Assembly: GCA_017991415.1 (NCBI GenBank)
Contig: JAGOQR010000001.1
Location: 173,385-212,489, forward strand
Direction of reading: 5' to 3'
Source of the DNA: Candidatus Magasanikiibacteriota bacterium
Lineage (GTDB): Bacteria > Patescibacteriota > Patescibacteriia > Magasanikbacterales > GWA2-37-8
DNA length: 39,105 nucleotides
Part shown: one piece after another, positions 756-9,232 of the stretch
Layout of the letters: each line of letters opens with the position of its first letter
Numbering within the stretch: the stretch's first letter is position 1
Translations under genes and position numbers: made by a program
The notes under the pieces: model-generated
What the model was told of the DNA's origin: nothing
The model's input: the letters and a program-made list of their open reading frames with translations, nothing else
The model's database searches: none

Positions 756-1892
756 TTATTTTTTCCTATGTTTTATTAAAATACGAGCATATTGTGGTTT
801 TCCGTTTATATAAGTACAATCCGTTGCGGATTTTACCTTGTTCATTAAATGCTCTCGTTCTCCTCGCACATTAGAATTTCCCAATATTTCAAATTGTTTA
901 GGATTATATTTATCAAGAAATGTAATCGGCACACCCATTACGCCTTTATAATCACTTGGAATTGCATCGGTAAAAGGTATTTCAATCGCATCATAATTAT
1001 CATATTTATCATACGCTTTTTTACCTTTAATTTCTTTATGTTTACTATACTTTAGATTTTCCGTCATTGTCATAAGTGGCAATGGTTGATGACGGCGACC
1101 GTGATCAAGATTAGTTAGCCATAAACAATTATTAGTGGCTACAATTCTGTTTCCATTCTCATCTATTCGAGCCTCTGATCCGTACAAGTCGTAGGATTCG
1201 GGAACAATAAATCCAGAAATCCATCTCCCCATTCCATTACCAAGCCATGCTATATTTTCTTTAATTTTTTGAAATATTTCTCTATAGGTTAGGCAGTTAA
1301 TATTACCGATAATCAAAAACTTTTTTTTATAATCAAAAAGTTGTCTAAAATATTCACGAAACAAACTGAAGGGTGGGTTGGTTACTACTATATCTGATTG
1401 CTTGAGTAGTTCGACACATTCATCACTACGAAAATCACCATCACTTTCTAACGGCGCCCATTCATTATTTTTGTTTACCTTTAACTGCTTGGCAACATCC
1501 TTCAAATTGAACTCACCATCGCCATCTATGTCTTTTACTTCGTTGATAATAAATTTGTTAGCCGTTATCTTCGGGCGTCCTTTTGTTTTTTCAAGTGTTT
1601 TGTCATCACCGAACAACCCTAGCTGCGTGTTGGCGACAGGTGATGGTTTATAACTTGTTGTGATAAGCTGTTTTAATCCAAGCTTGTTAAAATTGAGCAC
1701 GAAATAGCGAAAAAAATTACTTTCAAATGGATCGTCGCAATTACAATATACTGTCTTGTTGCGAAAAGTATCAAGATTATAATCTAGATACTTTTCAATC
1801 TCTTTTTGAATATCAATATACTGAGTATAAAACTCATCATTCTTTGCTTTTCTTGCTTTCTTAAGATTTTTGATTGAAGATATTCTGGCCAT
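756..1892 (-). CDS. EcoRI-family adenine-specific DNA methyltransferase
   Basis: A 378-residue protein resembling the EcoRI methylase family, which transfers a methyl group from S-adenosylmethionine to adenine N6 in DNA. The catalytic motif IV appears as NPPF near residues 172-175 ([15 protein letters not shown]). An early segment with KNDEFYTQY and [13 protein letters not shown] matches the usual family opening. The length is close to that of M.EcoRI-type enzymes. It is packed between the 77-residue membrane protein (3 nt upstream) and the DUF262 protein (4 nt downstream), so all appear co-transcribed. In this setting it most likely marks host DNA against the neighbouring effector, though it could also be an epigenetic or solitary enzyme. 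The target sequence cannot be read from the gene. Family call confident; pairing inferred. Confidence 0.88.
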
Positions 1893-2648: not shown

Positions 2649-2657
2649 ACACATTTG

Positions 2658-2729
2658 CAGGCCCGCTCGGATTCGAACCGAGAACCTCGGTTTTGGAGAC
2701 CGATGTTTTACCATTGAAACTACAGGCCT
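2658..2729 (-). tRNA. tRNA-Trp(CCA)
   Basis: A full cloverleaf can be folded: acceptor AGGCCTG with CGGGCCT, D-arm with AATGGTAAAAC, anticodon loop CTCCAAA giving CCA, and T-arm CTCGGTTCGAATCCGAG. The discriminator is G and no 3' CCA is encoded, unlike the Thr and Tyr genes of the same cluster. A damaged second copy of the gene lies at 3012-3086. Confidence 0.93.
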
Positions 2730-2744
2730 AGATATTACTAGAAA

Positions 2745-3005
2745 CTATTTACCACTACTTTTTAAATGCAGCCGCTTTATTAATCCAGTATATGCCGAAC
2801 CAAACTCTTTTAATTTTCTTTCCCGTTCTCTTGCCAACTCTTCAGTAAGATACGCTTCATAATATACTAACTGCAATGGTCTTCTGTATATAGTTGACTC
2901 CACTTCTCCAGCACAGTGATTTTTAAATCTTTTCTGTAAATCATTTGAATAACCAATATAATACCCTTTATCTTTTTCACTAATTAATAAATACACATAA
3001 TACAT
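2745..3005 (-). CDS. GIY-YIG domain protein (YhbQ/UPF0213-like)
   Basis: An 86-residue single-domain GIY-YIG protein. The signature is split as YYVYLL (residues 2-7) and GYYIGYS (residues 14-20), followed by a conserved arginine (LQKRFKNH), the LVYYEAY strand with glutamate, and an ARERERKLK helix near the C-terminus. Free-standing proteins of this size are common in CPR and are usually annotated as putative endonucleases without a known target. It sits between the intact tRNA-Trp and a disrupted tRNA-Trp copy, which suggests it came in with the event that duplicated the tRNA. Family call firm; activity in this cell unknown. Confidence 0.9.
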   Translation of the reverse strand: MYYVYLLISEKDKGYYIGYSNDLQKRFKNHCAGEVESTIYRRPLQLVYYEAYLTEELARERERKLKEFGSAYTGLIKRLHLKSSGK

Positions 3006-3011
3006 AGAATG

Positions 3012-3086
3012 CAGGTCGGATTCGCCCCGCCCTTCGCGAAGGGCGGGGTTGGAGACCGATGTTTTACCATTGAAACTACAGGCCTA
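3012..3086 (-). pseudogene. disrupted tRNA-Trp copy carrying a 24-nt palindrome
   Basis: The 38 bases at 3049-3086 are identical to 2693-2730, the 5' half of the intact tRNA-Trp through the anticodon. Beyond the anticodon, the variable region and 5' side of the T-arm are replaced by a perfect 24-nt palindrome (3025-3048, CCCCGCCCTTCG then its mirror). The last 13 bases again match the tRNA 3' part (TCGGATTCG and GCAGG on the plus strand), with five bases missing in the acceptor. It cannot fold as a tRNA, so it is a relic. It lies next to rpmG, the usual bacterial neighbour of tRNA-Trp. Confidence 0.85.
3025..3048. repeat. perfect 24-nt GC-rich palindrome
   Basis: Twelve-base arms (CCCCGCCCTTCG and its exact reverse complement) meet with no loop. 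Its composition differs sharply from the surrounding AT-rich DNA. It sits inside the tRNA-Trp relic, so it looks inserted, perhaps as a mobile palindromic unit. Confidence 0.85.
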
Positions 3087-3090
3087 AGTA

Positions 3091-3126
3091 CAAACCCCGC
3101 CCGGAAATCTATCAGAGCGGGGTTTG
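3091..3126. repeat. inverted repeat downstream of rpmG, possible terminator
   Basis: A 10-bp stem, CAAACCCCGC and GCGGGGTTTG, encloses a 16-nt loop. It is placed where the rpmG transcript would end on the minus strand, but no U-tract follows on that strand, so termination is uncertain. Confidence 0.5.
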
Positions 3127-3151
3127 CTTGTTGTATAATTAAACTAGAATT

Positions 3152-3307
3152 TTATTTTGTCTCTTTGTGTTCGGTGTGCTTCTTGCAGAACTTACACATT
3201 TTTTTGAGCTCTAAGCGATTTTTTAAAGTCTTTTTGTTTTTACTTGTAAAGTAGTTTATGTTGTGGCACTCCTTACACTCCAATTTCACTAGATTATCTT
3301 GTGACAT
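3152..3307 (-). CDS. rpmG: 50S ribosomal protein L33
   Basis: A 51-residue protein starting at the ATG at 3307, with the typical L33 pattern: [19 protein letters not shown], then a basic loop, then [15 protein letters not shown]. Two CxxC pairs (CKEC and CKFC) make it the zinc-binding form. L33 binds near the E site of the large subunit. It sits between tRNA-Thr(GGU) and the tRNA-Trp relic, matching the classic tRNA/rpmG/tRNA-Trp order that precedes secE-nusG in many bacteria. Here secE and nusG do not follow. Confidence 0.93.
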
Positions 3308-3375
3308 ATTGTTATTTAAAATTTTTAATTTAATAAATATTCATGAATAATGTTCCTTATCTCACAACTCATGAT

Positions 3376-3451
3376 TGGAGCCGTTGTCGGGATTTGAACC
3401 CGAGACCTTTTCCTTACCATGGAAATGCTCTACCAACTGAGCTACAACGGC
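3376..3451 (-). tRNA. tRNA-Thr(GGU)
   Basis: Cloverleaf with acceptor GCCGTTG / CAACGGC, D-arm AGCTCAGTTGGTAGAGCA, anticodon loop ATGGTAA (GGT) and T-arm CGGGTTCAAATCCCG. Discriminator T and an encoded CCA end are included. Confidence 0.95.
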
Positions 3452-3453
3452 AG

Positions 3454-3538
3454 TGGTGGGCAGACTAGGATTCGAACCTAGGAAGGCGTAGCCAGCTGAT
3501 TTACAGTCAGCCCCGTTTGACCGCTTCGGTATCTGCCC
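3454..3538 (-). tRNA. tRNA-Tyr(GUA)
   Basis: Class II cloverleaf with a long variable arm. The acceptor is GGGCAGA / TCTGCCC, the anticodon loop CTGTAAA gives GTA, the T-arm is CTAGGTTCGAATCCTAG, the discriminator is A and CCA is encoded. Confidence 0.95.
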
Positions 3539-3563
3539 ATGATAGGGTTTGATTACTAACTAC

Positions 3564-3639
3564 TGGAGCCGTCTCAGGGGTTCGAACCCTGGACCTACAG
3601 TTTACAAAACTGTTGCTCTACCAGCTGAGCTAAGACGGC
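3564..3639 (-). tRNA. tRNA-Thr(UGU)
   Basis: Cloverleaf with acceptor GCCGTCT / AGACGGC, anticodon stem ACAGT/ACTGT with loop TTTGTAA (TGT), T-arm CAGGGTTCGAACCCCTG, discriminator T and encoded CCA. It is the first tRNA of the minus-strand cluster. Confidence 0.95.
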
Positions 3640-6785: not shown

Positions 6786-8168
6786 CTATCTGCCATACTT
6801 CTCTTTTAGATATCCCTTTAGTTGCTCCATCGGAATTCTCTCTTGCACCATAGTATCCCTATCTCGAACCGTAACTTTTTTATCTTCTAAAGATTCAAAA
6901 TCAACCGTCACGCAATACGGTGTACCAATTTCATCTTGACGGCGGTAGCGCTTACCGATACTCTGAGTTTCATCGTATTCCACACTAAAATCTTTACGCA
7001 ACATGGCTGCCAAATCTTTGGCCACACCAGAAAGCTCTTCTTTTTTTGATAATGGCAAAATAGCAACTTGGATAGGTGCTAAATGTTTTGGAAATTTCAT
7101 TACCACACGAGTTTCTGTTTCACCTTCTTCGGCAGTTGGGGCCGCTTCTTCGTGATATGACTCAAGCAGACAAACAAGCAACATGCGATCAATACCAAAA
7201 GTTGGTTCTATTACATGAGGGATAAACTTTTCGTTTGTTTCTGGATCAGTATAGTGTAAATCTTGGCCACTCACTGTTTCGTGTCTGGATAAATCAAAAT
7301 CTGTACGATATGCGATACCGTGCAATTCTTTTACGCCAAAAGGAAATTTATATTCAATATCAACGGTGCGCTTACTGTAGTGCGCACGTTCACCATCTGG
7401 AATTTCGTGCCACACCAAGTTATCCATATTTACCTGCATAACATCTTGCCACCAGCGCCTAATTTCTCCAAGCCACATTTCAAATACTTTTTCCCAATCT
7501 TTTGGATTGATAAAATATTCAAACTCACCAATTTCAAATTCACGAGTACGGAAAATAAAATTGCCTGGTGTAATTTCGTTACGGAAGTTTTTACCAATCT
7601 GGGCCATACCAAACGGCAAACGTCGACGAGTAACAGTAATAATATTTTTAAAATTAACAAACATACCACCAGCCGTCTCTGGGCGTAAATAAGCAGTGGT
7701 AGATGTATCTTCATTTACTCCTAAAAACGTTTTAAACATAAGATTAAACGCCTTTGGATCGGTAAGAGGGCCTTCACAATCTGGACATTTTATCTCAGAA
7801 ATAGTTTTTGGATTTTCTTTATCATACCCAGGCTCGGCACTGGCTGCTTCGAGCAGATGATCGCTGCGGAAACGGTGGTGACATTTTTTACATTCTACCA
7901 GTTCGTCACTAAAATTTTGCAAGTGACCAGATGCTTCCCAAACTCTTGGATTCATAATAATAGCCGTATCAAGCGGCACCATATCCGATCGTTCTTGGAC
8001 AAAGAACTTCCACCAAGCGCTTTTGATGTTTTGTTTTAGTAAATGGCCTAATGGACCATAGTCCCAGCTATTGGCCAAACCACCATAAATTTCACTGCCT
8101 GGAAACACAAAACCGCGCCGTTTGGCAAGAGAAATTATTTTATCCATTTTGTCATCATTACTTGTCAT
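6786..8168 (-). CDS. glyS: glycyl-tRNA synthetase (dimeric, eukaryote/archaeal-like class II type)
   Basis: A 460-residue class II aminoacyl-tRNA synthetase that charges tRNA-Gly. The opening RRGFVFPGSEIYGGLANSWDYGPLG is diagnostic for the alpha2 glycyl enzyme. Motif 2 appears in IGKNFRNEITPGNFIFRTREFE and motif 3 in EPTFGIDRMLLVCLLE. A zinc-ribbon-like CKKCHH...CPDC segment lies near residues 90-135, and the C-terminal anticodon-binding domain starts at about residue 365 (PIQVAILPL). A T-box leader lies between its promoter and start codon, so expression should rise when tRNA-Gly is uncharged. Confidence 0.97.
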   Translation of the reverse strand: MTSNDDKMDKIISLAKRRGFVFPGSEIYGGLANSWDYGPLGHLLKQNIKSAWWKFFVQERSDMVPLDTAIIMNPRVWEASGHLQNFSDELVECKKCHHRFRSDHLLEAASAEPGYDKENPKTISEIKCPDCEGPLTDPKAFNLMFKTFLGVNEDTSTTAYLRPETAGGMFVNFKNIITVTRRRLPFGMAQIGKNFRNEITPGNFIFRTREFEIGEFEYFINPKDWEKVFEMWLGEIRRWWQDVMQVNMDNLVWHEIPDGERAHYSKRTVDIEYKFPFGVKELHGIAYRTDFDLSRHETVSGQDLHYTDPETNEKFIPHVIEPTFGIDRMLLVCLLESYHEEAAPTAEEGETETRVVMKFPKHLAPIQVAILPLSKKEELSGVAKDLAAMLRKDFSVEYDETQSIGKRYRRQDEIGTPYCVTVDFESLEDKKVTVRDRDTMVQERIPMEQLKGYLKEKYGR

Positions 8169-8344
8169 ATTATCTAATTATAGCAAAAAATTAATAAACA
8201 AAAAAGGCCTTCTAAGGCCTTGGGGTCCCCTTTTACAGGGATGGTTCCACCCAAGTTTTTTTCGCTTAATTAGCGAAAAACACTCTTTTGAATTACAGAT
8301 TTACTCCAAAGGTGCCGACCTTCTTCATCGCAACTGTTATTCAC
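8169..8344 (-). promoter_or_regulatory. T-box riboswitch leader of glyS
   Basis: The minus-strand leader contains the T-box core TGGGTGGAACC (plus 8243-8253), close to the family consensus. Its UGGA would pair with the UCCA 3' end of uncharged tRNA-Gly. CTTGGG just before the bulge can pair with CCCAAG downstream (antiterminator). That CCCAAG overlaps the 5' arm of a terminator hairpin AAGGCC-TTAGAA-GGCCTT with following Ts (about 8199-8222), so the two folds exclude each other. A Stem I-like helix (GAAT/ATTC, ACAG/CTGT, AAGGT/ACCTT) spans about 8290-8342 and is unusually short. Glycine codons GGC (8314-8316, apical loop) and GGA (8305-8307, internal loop) are candidate specifiers. T-boxes on glycyl synthetase genes are well known in Firmicutes. 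Confidence 0.85.
8199..8222 (-). terminator. T-box-controlled terminator in glyS leader
   Basis: Hairpin AAGGCC / GGCCTT with a 6-nt loop and a following T-run, placed between the T-box sequence and the glyS start. Its 5' arm overlaps the antiterminator arm. Confidence 0.75.
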
Positions 8345-8349
8345 CAATA

Positions 8350-8378
8350 ACTATACTTAAATAGTTAGCACATGTCAA
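8350..8378 (-). promoter_or_regulatory. sigma70-type promoter of glyS
   Basis: TTGACA (plus 8373-8378) and TATAGT (plus 8350-8355) are separated by exactly 17 nt. The predicted start near 8344 is at the beginning of the T-box leader. Confidence 0.85.
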
Positions 8379-8683: not shown

Positions 8684-9232
8684 TTAAATGGTATTTATCT
8701 CTCCTTCTTTCTTTTCAGCAATTCCCTTTATTACATCATTGTATTCTTTTACTGTTTTATCTAGGTCTTCTTCTAGCTTATACTTTTCATCTTCGGTAAC
8801 CTCGTTGTCCGCTTCTGCTTGTTTAACCATTTCTTTTATATCTTCACGTACTTTTCTAAGGGCAATGCGAGCAGCCTCTTCTTTTTGATGCAACACCTTT
8901 ATAAGCTCTTGGCGTCTTTCACTGGTAAGCTCTGGCAAAAATATACGCACCTGACTACCTGTATTTACAGGATTCAGCCCCAAACCACAATCACGCACAC
9001 CTTTTTCTACAGCTTGCAGAATACTTTTGTCCCATGGTTCGATATTTACTGTTTTGGCATCTGGAATACTAATGGAAGCAAGTGATTTGAGCGTTTGGTA
9101 CGTGCCATAAGCTTCAACCATAATATCTTCCACAATAGCAGAACTAGCTCGACCAGTGCGAAGCCCAGAGATATCTTCTTTAAAAAAAGTTACTGCTCCT
9201 TCAAAATCTGCTTTAAAATCATTAATATTCAT
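8684..9232 (-). CDS. frr: ribosome recycling factor
   Basis: A 182-residue all-standard RRF, which splits the post-termination ribosome together with EF-G. Typical signatures are LRTGRASSAIVEDIMVEAYG near residues 24-43, SISIPDAKTVNIEPWDKS, VRIFLPELTSERRQELIKV, and a long C-terminal helix rich in K/E (REDIKEMVKQAEADNEVTEDE). Length is normal. It lies downstream of an Asp-box lipoprotein gene instead of the more usual pyrH; pyrH is found about 12 kb away. Confidence 0.97.
   Translation of the reverse strand: MNINDFKADFEGAVTFFKEDISGLRTGRASSAIVEDIMVEAYGTYQTLKSLASISIPDAKTVNIEPWDKSILQAVEKGVRDCGLGLNPVNTGSQVRIFLPELTSERRQELIKVLHQKEEAARIALRKVREDIKEMVKQAEADNEVTEDEKYKLEEDLDKTVKEYNDVIKGIAEKKEGEINTI

What the first reader, a model, noticed from the sequence alone, without database searches (positions are those of the whole stretch)
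8169..8378. T-box leader on glyS with an unusually short Stem I
A near-consensus promoter, a T-box core (TGGGTGGAACC), and mutually exclusive antiterminator and terminator hairpins precede glyS. T-boxes are best known from Firmicutes and a few other phyla. Here Stem I seems to be only about 50 nt, with a GGC in the apical loop or a GGA in the internal loop as specifier, which would be a reduced form.
Basis: partly seen in the sequence, partly recalled or inferred. Interest (0 to 1): 0.65.

Follow-up and report, generated by a model that had tools for sequence, protein, structure and literature searches.

The report
Minimal glycine T-box before glyS
In a tiny uncultured bacterium (a Candidatus Magasanikbacteria relative), the glycyl-tRNA synthetase gene is preceded by an RNA switch that should read uncharged glycine tRNA directly; it is a stripped-down T-box that lacks both extra tRNA-gripping modules thought to be needed, and the same short form recurs in many related genomes.

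Summary
The finding holds up. On the minus strand, 8378-8199 carries a promoter (TTGACA-17-TATAGT), a 55-nt Stem I, Stem III, a T-box (UGGGUGGAACC), competing antiterminator and terminator hairpins, then glyS (NF003211). Rfam's T-box model finds it, but far below its cut-off (31.8 against 93 bits, E 1.7e-4). My own model finds relatives in 100 of 381 genomes of the class. All 90 hits I read lie upstream of an aminoacyl-tRNA synthetase gene: glyS (19), thrS (68), valS (2) or ileS (1).

Stem I is ultrashort: a K-turn and a 5-bp stem, with the specifier codon in the apical loop. The codon follows the gene: GGC or GGA in glyS leaders, ACC in thrS leaders. Stem I pairs covary (74 of 76 against 52 shuffled). 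The genome's tRNA-Gly(GCC) ends in UCCA, matching GGC and UGGA.

What is new is the combination: a terminator-type T-box with neither the tRNA-elbow module (IDTM) nor Stem II. The literature I could read treats IDTM as essential for transcriptional T-boxes, and Stem II as essential when IDTM is missing. The same form occurs in uncultured Bacilli; none tested reaches Rfam's cut-off. Function is inferred; nothing was measured.

The parts
8350..8378 (-). Promoter P1: -35 TTGACA (8378-8373), 17-nt spacer, -10 TATAGT (8355-8350)
   Evidence: consensus scan, 11 of 12 matches; sequence
8289..8343 (-). Ultrashort Stem I: basal stem (UGAAU 8343-8339 with AUUCA 8293-8289; ACAG 8337-8334 with CUGU 8298-8295), inner stem UUGC 8333-8330 with GUAA 8304-8301, kink-turn, specifier stem and loop
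   Evidence: MFE fold; specifier stem covaries in relatives
8304..8330 (-). Kink-turn (GA motif): C[GAU]GA on the 5' side (8330-8325), GGA on the 3' side (8307-8305)
   Evidence: aligned to the same motif of RF00230; GAUGA/GGAG recurs in relatives
8308..8323 (-). Specifier hairpin: GAAGG 8323-8319 / CCUUU 8312-8308, apical loop UCGGCA 8318-8313
   Evidence: 74 of 76 pairs in 19 leaders against 52.1 (sd 3.3) in shuffles; 11 different stems
8314..8316 (-). Specifier codon GGC (Gly), read by the tRNA-Gly(GCC) anticodon
   Evidence: GGC/GGA at this place in glyS leaders, ACC in thrS leaders; tRNA-Gly(GCC) in the genome
8256..8285 (-). Stem III with purine-string motif: GAGUG (8285-8281, RRRNG), stem UUUUUCGCU 8280-8272 / AGCGAAAAA 8266-8258, then AA
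   Evidence: Stem III: 9 pairs, 96.7% paired, all 9 with changes on both sides in 21 leaders
8219..8255 (-). Antiterminator: A1 CUUGGG 8255-8250 / CCCAAG 8224-8219; A2 UCCC 8241-8238 / GGGA 8229-8226
   Evidence: helices 3 and 4 of A3, 96.8% and 89.8% paired, with double changes; fold
8243..8249 (-). T-box bulge UGGAACC; UGGA (8249-8246) pairs with the tRNA-Gly 3' end UCCA
   Evidence: core invariant in the four aligned glyS leaders; tRNA-Gly discriminator U
8200..8221 (-). Intrinsic terminator AAGGCCU 8221-8215 / AGGCCUU 8210-8204 plus U-run; shares AAG (8221-8219) with antiterminator A1, so the two exclude each other
   Evidence: terminator scan; folds; changed on both sides in relatives, AAGACCU/AGGUCUU
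8177..8185 (-). Possible second promoter P2: extended -10 TGCTATAAT just after the terminator, 8 nt before the start codon
   Evidence: same motif in this interval in 5 of 21 glyS loci, shuffled mean 0.14
6786..8168 (-). glyS, glycine--tRNA ligase (alpha2 type), 460 aa: the regulated gene
   Evidence: NF003211.1 E 9.4e-192, TIGR00389 E 2.1e-156

Best explanation
A transcription-attenuating glycine T-box. The leader RNA is made from promoter P1. The GGC in the apical loop of an ultrashort, kink-turned Stem I pairs with the anticodon of tRNA-Gly(GCC). If that tRNA is uncharged, its UCCA end pairs with UGGA of the T-box bulge, holds the antiterminator (CUUGGG/CCCAAG), and RNA polymerase reads through into glyS. 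If the tRNA is charged, the glycine on its 3' end blocks this, the AAGGCCU terminator forms and glyS is not made. Specificity rests on these two contacts, since neither the elbow-binding IDTM nor Stem II is present. Shown: the parts, their covariation, the codon-gene match, the tRNA match and the competing hairpins. Inferred: tRNA binding, aminoacylation sensing and tRNA-dependent readthrough.
For: RF00230 match E 1.7e-4 with the Stem I and Stem II parts missing. Custom model: 100 of 381 genomes of the class with a match; all 90 hits read lie upstream of glyS, thrS, valS or ileS, three of them with thrS as a later gene. Specifier loop: GGC in 15 of 21 glyS leaders (3.7 in shuffles) and ACC in 1; ACC in 48 of 67 thrS leaders (9.5 in shuffles) and GGC in 8 (6.7 in shuffles). 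Covariation: 92.9% of cells paired against 68.6% shuffled, 22 of 25 pairs changed on both sides; Stem I 74 of 76 pairs. tRNA-Gly(GCC) ends ...CUGCUCCA, discriminator U. Switch between antiterminator and terminator as the transcript grows.
Against: The score is far below Rfam's gathering cut-off. Review PMC7583486 states that transcriptional T-boxes generally require a long Stem I with IDTM, and that Stem II becomes essential when IDTM is lacking, so a form with neither may bind tRNA weakly or need a helper. The G-U pair that ends helix A2, described there as the primary steric sensor, is an A-C mismatch in the window. The leader is patchy: 5 of 22 glyS genes of the family have it. No RNA or binding data.
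Confidence: 0.9

Rival explanations
1. A decaying T-box: Stem I has been eroded, the leader no longer senses tRNA, and only a constitutive partial terminator remains.
For: Patchy presence in the family; the closest relative G021 keeps promoter and terminator but has lost the whole sensor; G002 has lost the kink-turn flanks. A possible bypass promoter P2 lies downstream of the terminator.
Against: In the window and in the other glyS leaders Stem I is intact and covaries; specifier, T-box core and helices A1 and A2 are kept across distant families. The codon-to-gene match holds in thrS leaders too.
Confidence: 0.05
2. Leader-peptide attenuation: a ribosome translating the short ORF ATGAAGAAGGTCGGCACCTTTGGAGTAAATCTGTAA (MKKVGTFGVNL) stalls at Gly codons and blocks the terminator.
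For: The ORF exists in the window and contains GGC and GGA in frame.
Against: It is not conserved: in G022 the frame runs on without that stop, in G012 and G013 GGC is out of frame, and many leaders have no ATG there. The ATG is part of the kink-turn GAUGA. The T-box core would be unexplained.
Confidence: 0.02
3. A T-box that needs a protein partner: a kink-turn-binding protein of the L7Ae/YbxF kind clamps Stem I and makes up for the missing IDTM and Stem II. This is an extension of the main explanation and can be true together with it.
For: The kink-turn is kept although almost all else of Stem I is gone. Kink-turn proteins YbxF and YlxQ are named as partners of T-box Stem I in PMC7583486.
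Against: No such protein was looked for here.
Confidence: 0.25

Closest known systems
Translational ileS T-boxes of Actinobacteria with ultrashort Stem I (Mycobacterium, Nocardia; PDB 6UFG, 6UFM as cited in PMC7583486)
   Same: Short Stem I with kink-turn, no IDTM, same discriminator core with UGGN and Stem III.
   Different: Those control translation and depend on Stem II with its S-turn and the Stem IIA/B pseudoknot (PMC10651847, PMC7583486). Here there is a terminator, no Stem II, and the gene is glyS.
glyQS/glyQ transcriptional T-boxes of Firmicutes (B. subtilis, Geobacillus, Oceanobacillus)
   Same: Glycine specifier GGC, UGGA bulge, terminator/antiterminator control, no Stem II (specifier, bulge and lack of Stem II from my own knowledge).
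   Different: Those have a long Stem I with specifier internal loop, S-turn and IDTM that grips the tRNA elbow. Here RF00230 aligns 76 Stem I positions to 8 nt and the specifier is in the apical loop.
thrS leaders of the same bacterial class (this study, L057-L136)
   Same: Ultrashort Stem I, specifier (ACC) in the apical loop, same T-box core.
   Different: Most have an extra hairpin and a conserved CUAA stretch between Stem I and Stem III, which looks like Stem II and IIA/B.

Membership tests
T-box riboswitch (RF00230 kind) | Match to the Rfam T-box covariance model | tested here: inconclusive
   E 1.7e-4 but 31.8 bits against a gathering score of 93
T-box riboswitch (RF00230 kind) | T-box bulge UGGNACC between helices A1 and A2 | tested here: met
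   UGGAACC 8249-8243; A1 and A2 covary
T-box riboswitch (RF00230 kind) | Bulge N complementary to the discriminator base of the cognate tRNA | tested here: met
   UGGA against UCCA of tRNA-Gly(GCC); also U in tRNA-Gly(TCC) and (CCC)
T-box riboswitch (RF00230 kind) | Stem I specifier codon matching the regulated gene | tested here: met
   GGC in the loop, glyS downstream; ACC with thrS in relatives
T-box riboswitch (RF00230 kind) | RRRNG-Stem III-AA purine string | tested here: met
   GAGUG-Stem III-AA at 8285-8256; Stem III 96.7% paired in 21 leaders
T-box riboswitch (RF00230 kind) | Competing terminator (transcriptional class) | tested here: met
   shared AAG 8221-8219, folds and scan
T-box riboswitch (RF00230 kind) | Response to uncharged tRNA | not testable with these tools
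   needs in vitro transcription or reporter assay
canonical transcriptional T-box, long Stem I | IDTM (double T-loop) on a long Stem I; specifier in an internal loop with S-turn | tested here: not met
   fewer than 25 nt between the kink-turn strands; specifier in the apical loop
ultrashort Stem I T-box of Actinobacteria (ileS) | Kink-turned short Stem I without IDTM | tested here: met
ultrashort Stem I T-box of Actinobacteria (ileS) | Stem II with S-turn and Stem IIA/B pseudoknot | tested here: not met
   only a short linker between Stem I and Stem III in the window; likewise in most glyS leaders, G366 being a possible exception
ultrashort Stem I T-box of Actinobacteria (ileS) | Translational control by Shine-Dalgarno sequestration | tested here: not met
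   intrinsic terminator present; no Shine-Dalgarno-like sequence seen before the ATG

The most novel reading that the evidence does not exclude
This is the smallest natural T-box layout: uncharged tRNA is sensed through only two contacts (codon-anticodon in an apical loop, and UGGN-NCCA), with no elbow grip and no Stem II, and fast enough to decide transcription termination. It is a widespread class of its own in Patescibacteria and uncultured Bacilli that Rfam-based surveys miss.
Probability: 0.6. Interest if true: 0.75.

Novelty: new variant of a known kind. Interest (0 to 1): 0.6.

Why it matters
Work on T-boxes holds that terminator-type T-boxes need the elbow-binding IDTM to catch tRNA in time, and that those without IDTM need Stem II. 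A natural, widely conserved T-box with neither makes that rule directly testable and gives a roughly 140-nt tRNA sensor for study or design. It also extends tRNA-sensing riboswitches to Patescibacteria, a group whose gene regulation is little known. The Rfam cut-off explains why they would have been missed.

Tried and rejected
1) GGA in the internal loop as specifier: rejected, it is the kink-turn 3' strand. 2) Leader peptide with Gly codons: frame not conserved. 3) Promoter plus plain terminator without sensor: rejected by covariation and the codon-gene match. 4) Recent transfer of glyS between the window's lineage and the Bacilli that share the leader: the GlyRS tree puts the Bacilli in one separate, fully supported clade (100/100), so no recent transfer of the gene is seen; T-box presence needs about 10 changes on the tree, probably in part losses within the family. 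5) MAFFT alignment of gly and thr leaders together put Stem I out of register and was not used. 6) Choosing the single most stable hairpin per leader gave a noisier version of the codon test. 8) L147 (Lactiplantibacillus) matched the DNA pattern but does not form the short hairpin; read as a canonical long Stem I. 9) Many other pattern hits (Actinobacteria, Cyanobacteria and others) look like chance matches without a T-box leader.

Full report
What was checked. The stretch 8169-8378 was read on both strands. The features lie on the minus strand, in front of the ORF 6786-8168, which is glycine--tRNA ligase by two curated models (NF003211.1, E 9.4e-192; TIGR00389, E 2.1e-156). The promoter TTGACA-17-TATAGT is at 8378-8350 and the terminator hairpin at 8221-8204. 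Rfam's T-box model matches 8337-8218 with E 1.7e-4 and 31.8 bits; the family's cut-off is 93 bits, so the leader is invisible to standard annotation. In the alignment, 76 consensus positions of Stem I correspond to 8 nt, and two further blocks of 27 and 13 positions to 3 and 2 nt. The leader folds better than all 200 dinucleotide shuffles (z -3.4).

Anatomy of the window leader. The transcript should start near 8343. Stem I is a basal stem (UGAAU/AUUCA, ACAG/CUGU, UUGC/GUAA), a kink-turn (GAUGA against GGA), a 5-bp stem (GAAGG/CCUUU) and a 6-nt loop UCGGCA with GGC at 8316-8314. A short linker leads to GAGUG, Stem III and AA, the purine-string arrangement described for T-boxes in PMC7583486. 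Then come helix A1 (CUUGGG/CCCAAG), the bulge UGGAACC and helix A2 (UCCC/GGGA). The terminator AAGGCCU/AGGCCUU reuses AAG of A1. Folding of the growing transcript gives the antiterminator as optimum at 131-137 nt and the terminator by 143 nt (-46.0 against -43.1 kcal/mol for the full length).

tRNA. The genome has tRNA-Gly(GCC), (TCC) and (CCC), all with discriminator U. The GCC isoacceptor (L041:202-276) ends CUGCUCCA, so GCC can pair with GGC and UCCA with UGGA.

Relatives. RF00230 at E <= 0.01 found T-box-like hits in 7 of 25 genomes of the family. Four glyS leaders (window, G022, G012, G013) were aligned and made into a covariance model, R1. R1 matches 100 of 381 genomes of the class at E <= 0.01 and 39 of 380 genomes drawn across the phylum at E <= 0.001. 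I read 90 of the class hits with their downstream DNA. By sequence motif, the longest downstream ORF is glyS in 19, thrS in 65, valS in 2 and ileS in 1; in the other 3, thrS follows as a later gene. Random hairpins would not sit before synthetase genes every time. The model contains the window sequence, so its score on the window itself (134.6 bits) is by construction and is not evidence.

The specifier. In glyS leaders GG[C/A] stands at one fixed place: one loop base, then a 5-nt stem arm, then usually GGA. 19 of 21 leaders fit this rule; G195 and G240 differ by a base of stem or flank but also hold GGC in the loop. The stems differ widely (11 kinds of the inner 4 bp), yet 74 of 76 pairs form; re-dealing the 3' arms gives 52.1 (sd 3.3, highest of 10,000: 65). 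In thrS leaders the equivalent loop reads CUACCAA, CCACCAA and the like. Counting any hairpin with at least 5 pairs and a 5-9 nt loop: GGC in 15 of 21 glyS leaders (3.7 in shuffles) and ACC in 1; ACC in 48 of 67 thrS leaders (9.5 in shuffles) and GGC in 8 (6.7 in shuffles). One ileS leader (L008) holds AUC in the loop of CCCGG-CAUCA-CCGGG. The loop codon therefore follows the amino acid of the gene.

Covariation of the rest. On 21 glyS leaders aligned to R1, 92.9% of cells pair against 68.6% in shuffles, 22 of 25 pairs have changes on both sides, and the covariation score is 0.572 against 0.194 (0 of 500 shuffles). Sliding the partners by 1-3 columns drops the score to at most 0.170. The alignment was fitted to the model's structure, which favours it somewhat; the Stem I count does not depend on that alignment.

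What is missing. Between Stem I and Stem III the window has only a short linker with no predicted Stem II. From the specifier to the T-box core is 39-64 nt in 15 of 19 glyS leaders, which leaves room for Stem III and a linker only; the four longer ones mostly have a larger Stem III, while G366 has room for an extra hairpin. There is no room for an IDTM. [quoted passage not shown] PMC10651847 shows Stem II and the IIA/B pseudoknot to be critical for the ultrashort ileS T-box. The glyS leaders here lack both. In addition, the G-U pair that ends helix A2 and is called the primary steric sensor in PMC7583486 is an A-C mismatch in the window and G022, and U-A, C-G or G-U in other glyS leaders.

Where it occurs. 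An exact DNA pattern for the short glyS form, run over a collection of 84,980 named species genomes, found it in several Candidatus Magasanikbacteria or other Patescibacteria (L137, L139, L144, L178; L148 and L149 match the contigs of G012 and G013 by length) and in uncultured Bacilli, Mycoplasmatota and Christensenella bins (for instance L142, L145, L160, L163, L164, L170). Many other hits look like chance. R1 also matches the Bacilli and Christensenella leaders (E 6e-11 to 8e-8) and 6 of 60 genomes of one such order. None of 16 such loci, Patescibacteria and Bacilli together, reaches the Rfam T-box cut-off. The window's lineage is inferred from G022, same genus, whose contig length equals that of L144 (Candidatus Magasanikbacteria). 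In the GlyRS tree the Bacilli form one separate clade, so recent transfer of glyS is not seen; T-box presence needs about 10 changes.

Loss in relatives. Of 22 glyS genes of the family with upstream DNA, 5 have the leader; in many others glyS follows directly on another gene, which by its end sequence looks like the ribosome recycling factor gene frr, the gene that also lies upstream in the window (8684-9232). In G021, of the same genus, the promoter and the terminator hairpin remain but the sensor is gone.

Mechanism. The best explanation is tRNA-Gly-dependent antitermination. Steps shown: the parts, covariation, codon-gene match, tRNA complementarity and mutually exclusive hairpins. Steps inferred: tRNA binding, rejection of charged tRNA, and readthrough. 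A possible second promoter (TGCTATAAT, 8185-8177) lies between the terminator and the start codon; the same extended -10 is found in that interval in 5 of 21 glyS loci against 0.14 in shuffles. It could give T-box-independent, leaderless basal expression.

Novelty. The kind (T-box) and the trait (ultrashort Stem I) are known. The combination of terminator control, apical-loop specifier, no IDTM and no Stem II, on glyS, was not found in the papers I could read. A search of the held library for T-box together with riboswitch and Candidate Phyla Radiation gave no paper. TBDB was built from Rfam-type sources plus a class II search of Actinobacteria, and it mentions truncated Stem I among class I hits without details in the main text, so some members may already be listed there. 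Subscription papers, including the 2015 description of ultrashort Stem I, could not be read.

Noticed in passing
L057-L136 (for example L057, L065, L066, L070): About 68 thrS leaders in the class have the same ultrashort Stem I type with ACC in the apical loop of most, many with an extra hairpin and a CUAA stretch that look like Stem II and IIA/B.
   Followed up: partly
L008, match 1420-1573 (minus): ileS leader of G019 with AUC in an apical loop (CCCGG-CAUCA-CCGGG) and core GGGATGGTACC.
   Followed up: partly
L138, L142, L145, L160, L163, L164, L170, L174, L177, L188: Uncultured Bacilli and Christensenella bins carry the same short glycine T-box before glyS; none tested reaches the Rfam cut-off.
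   Followed up: partly
window 8185-8177 (minus); L216 upstream of glyS: Extended -10 TGNTATAAT just downstream of the terminator and before the glyS start in 5 of 21 loci (0.14 in shuffles), with a near match in G021: a possible bypass promoter giving leaderless mRNA.
   Followed up: partly
L216 (G021, same genus), just upstream of glyS: Promoter and terminator hairpin remain but the whole T-box sensor between them is missing: a natural deletion.
   Followed up: no
L227 (G002), upstream of glyS: T-box leader with the specifier hairpin GAAGG-GUUUGGCU-CCUUC but without the kink-turn flanks GAUGA/GGAG.
   Followed up: no
L003, match 1431-1719 (minus): A longer T-box-like element (62 bits, E 1.4e-13) in G012; a GNAT-like acetyltransferase ORF follows. 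Specifier not worked out.
   Followed up: no
window 8327-8292 (minus): A short ORF ATGAAGAAGGTCGGCACCTTTGGAGTAAATCTGTAA with two Gly codons overlaps Stem I; not conserved in frame, so probably chance from the GAUGA kink-turn.
   Followed up: yes
window 2657-3639 (minus): Cluster of tRNA genes Trp, Thr(GGT), Tyr, Thr(TGT).
   Followed up: no
window 8242 and 8225 (minus): The pair that closes helix A2 next to the T-box bulge is A-C, where the classical steric sensor is G-U; other glyS leaders have U-A, C-G or G-U.
   Followed up: partly
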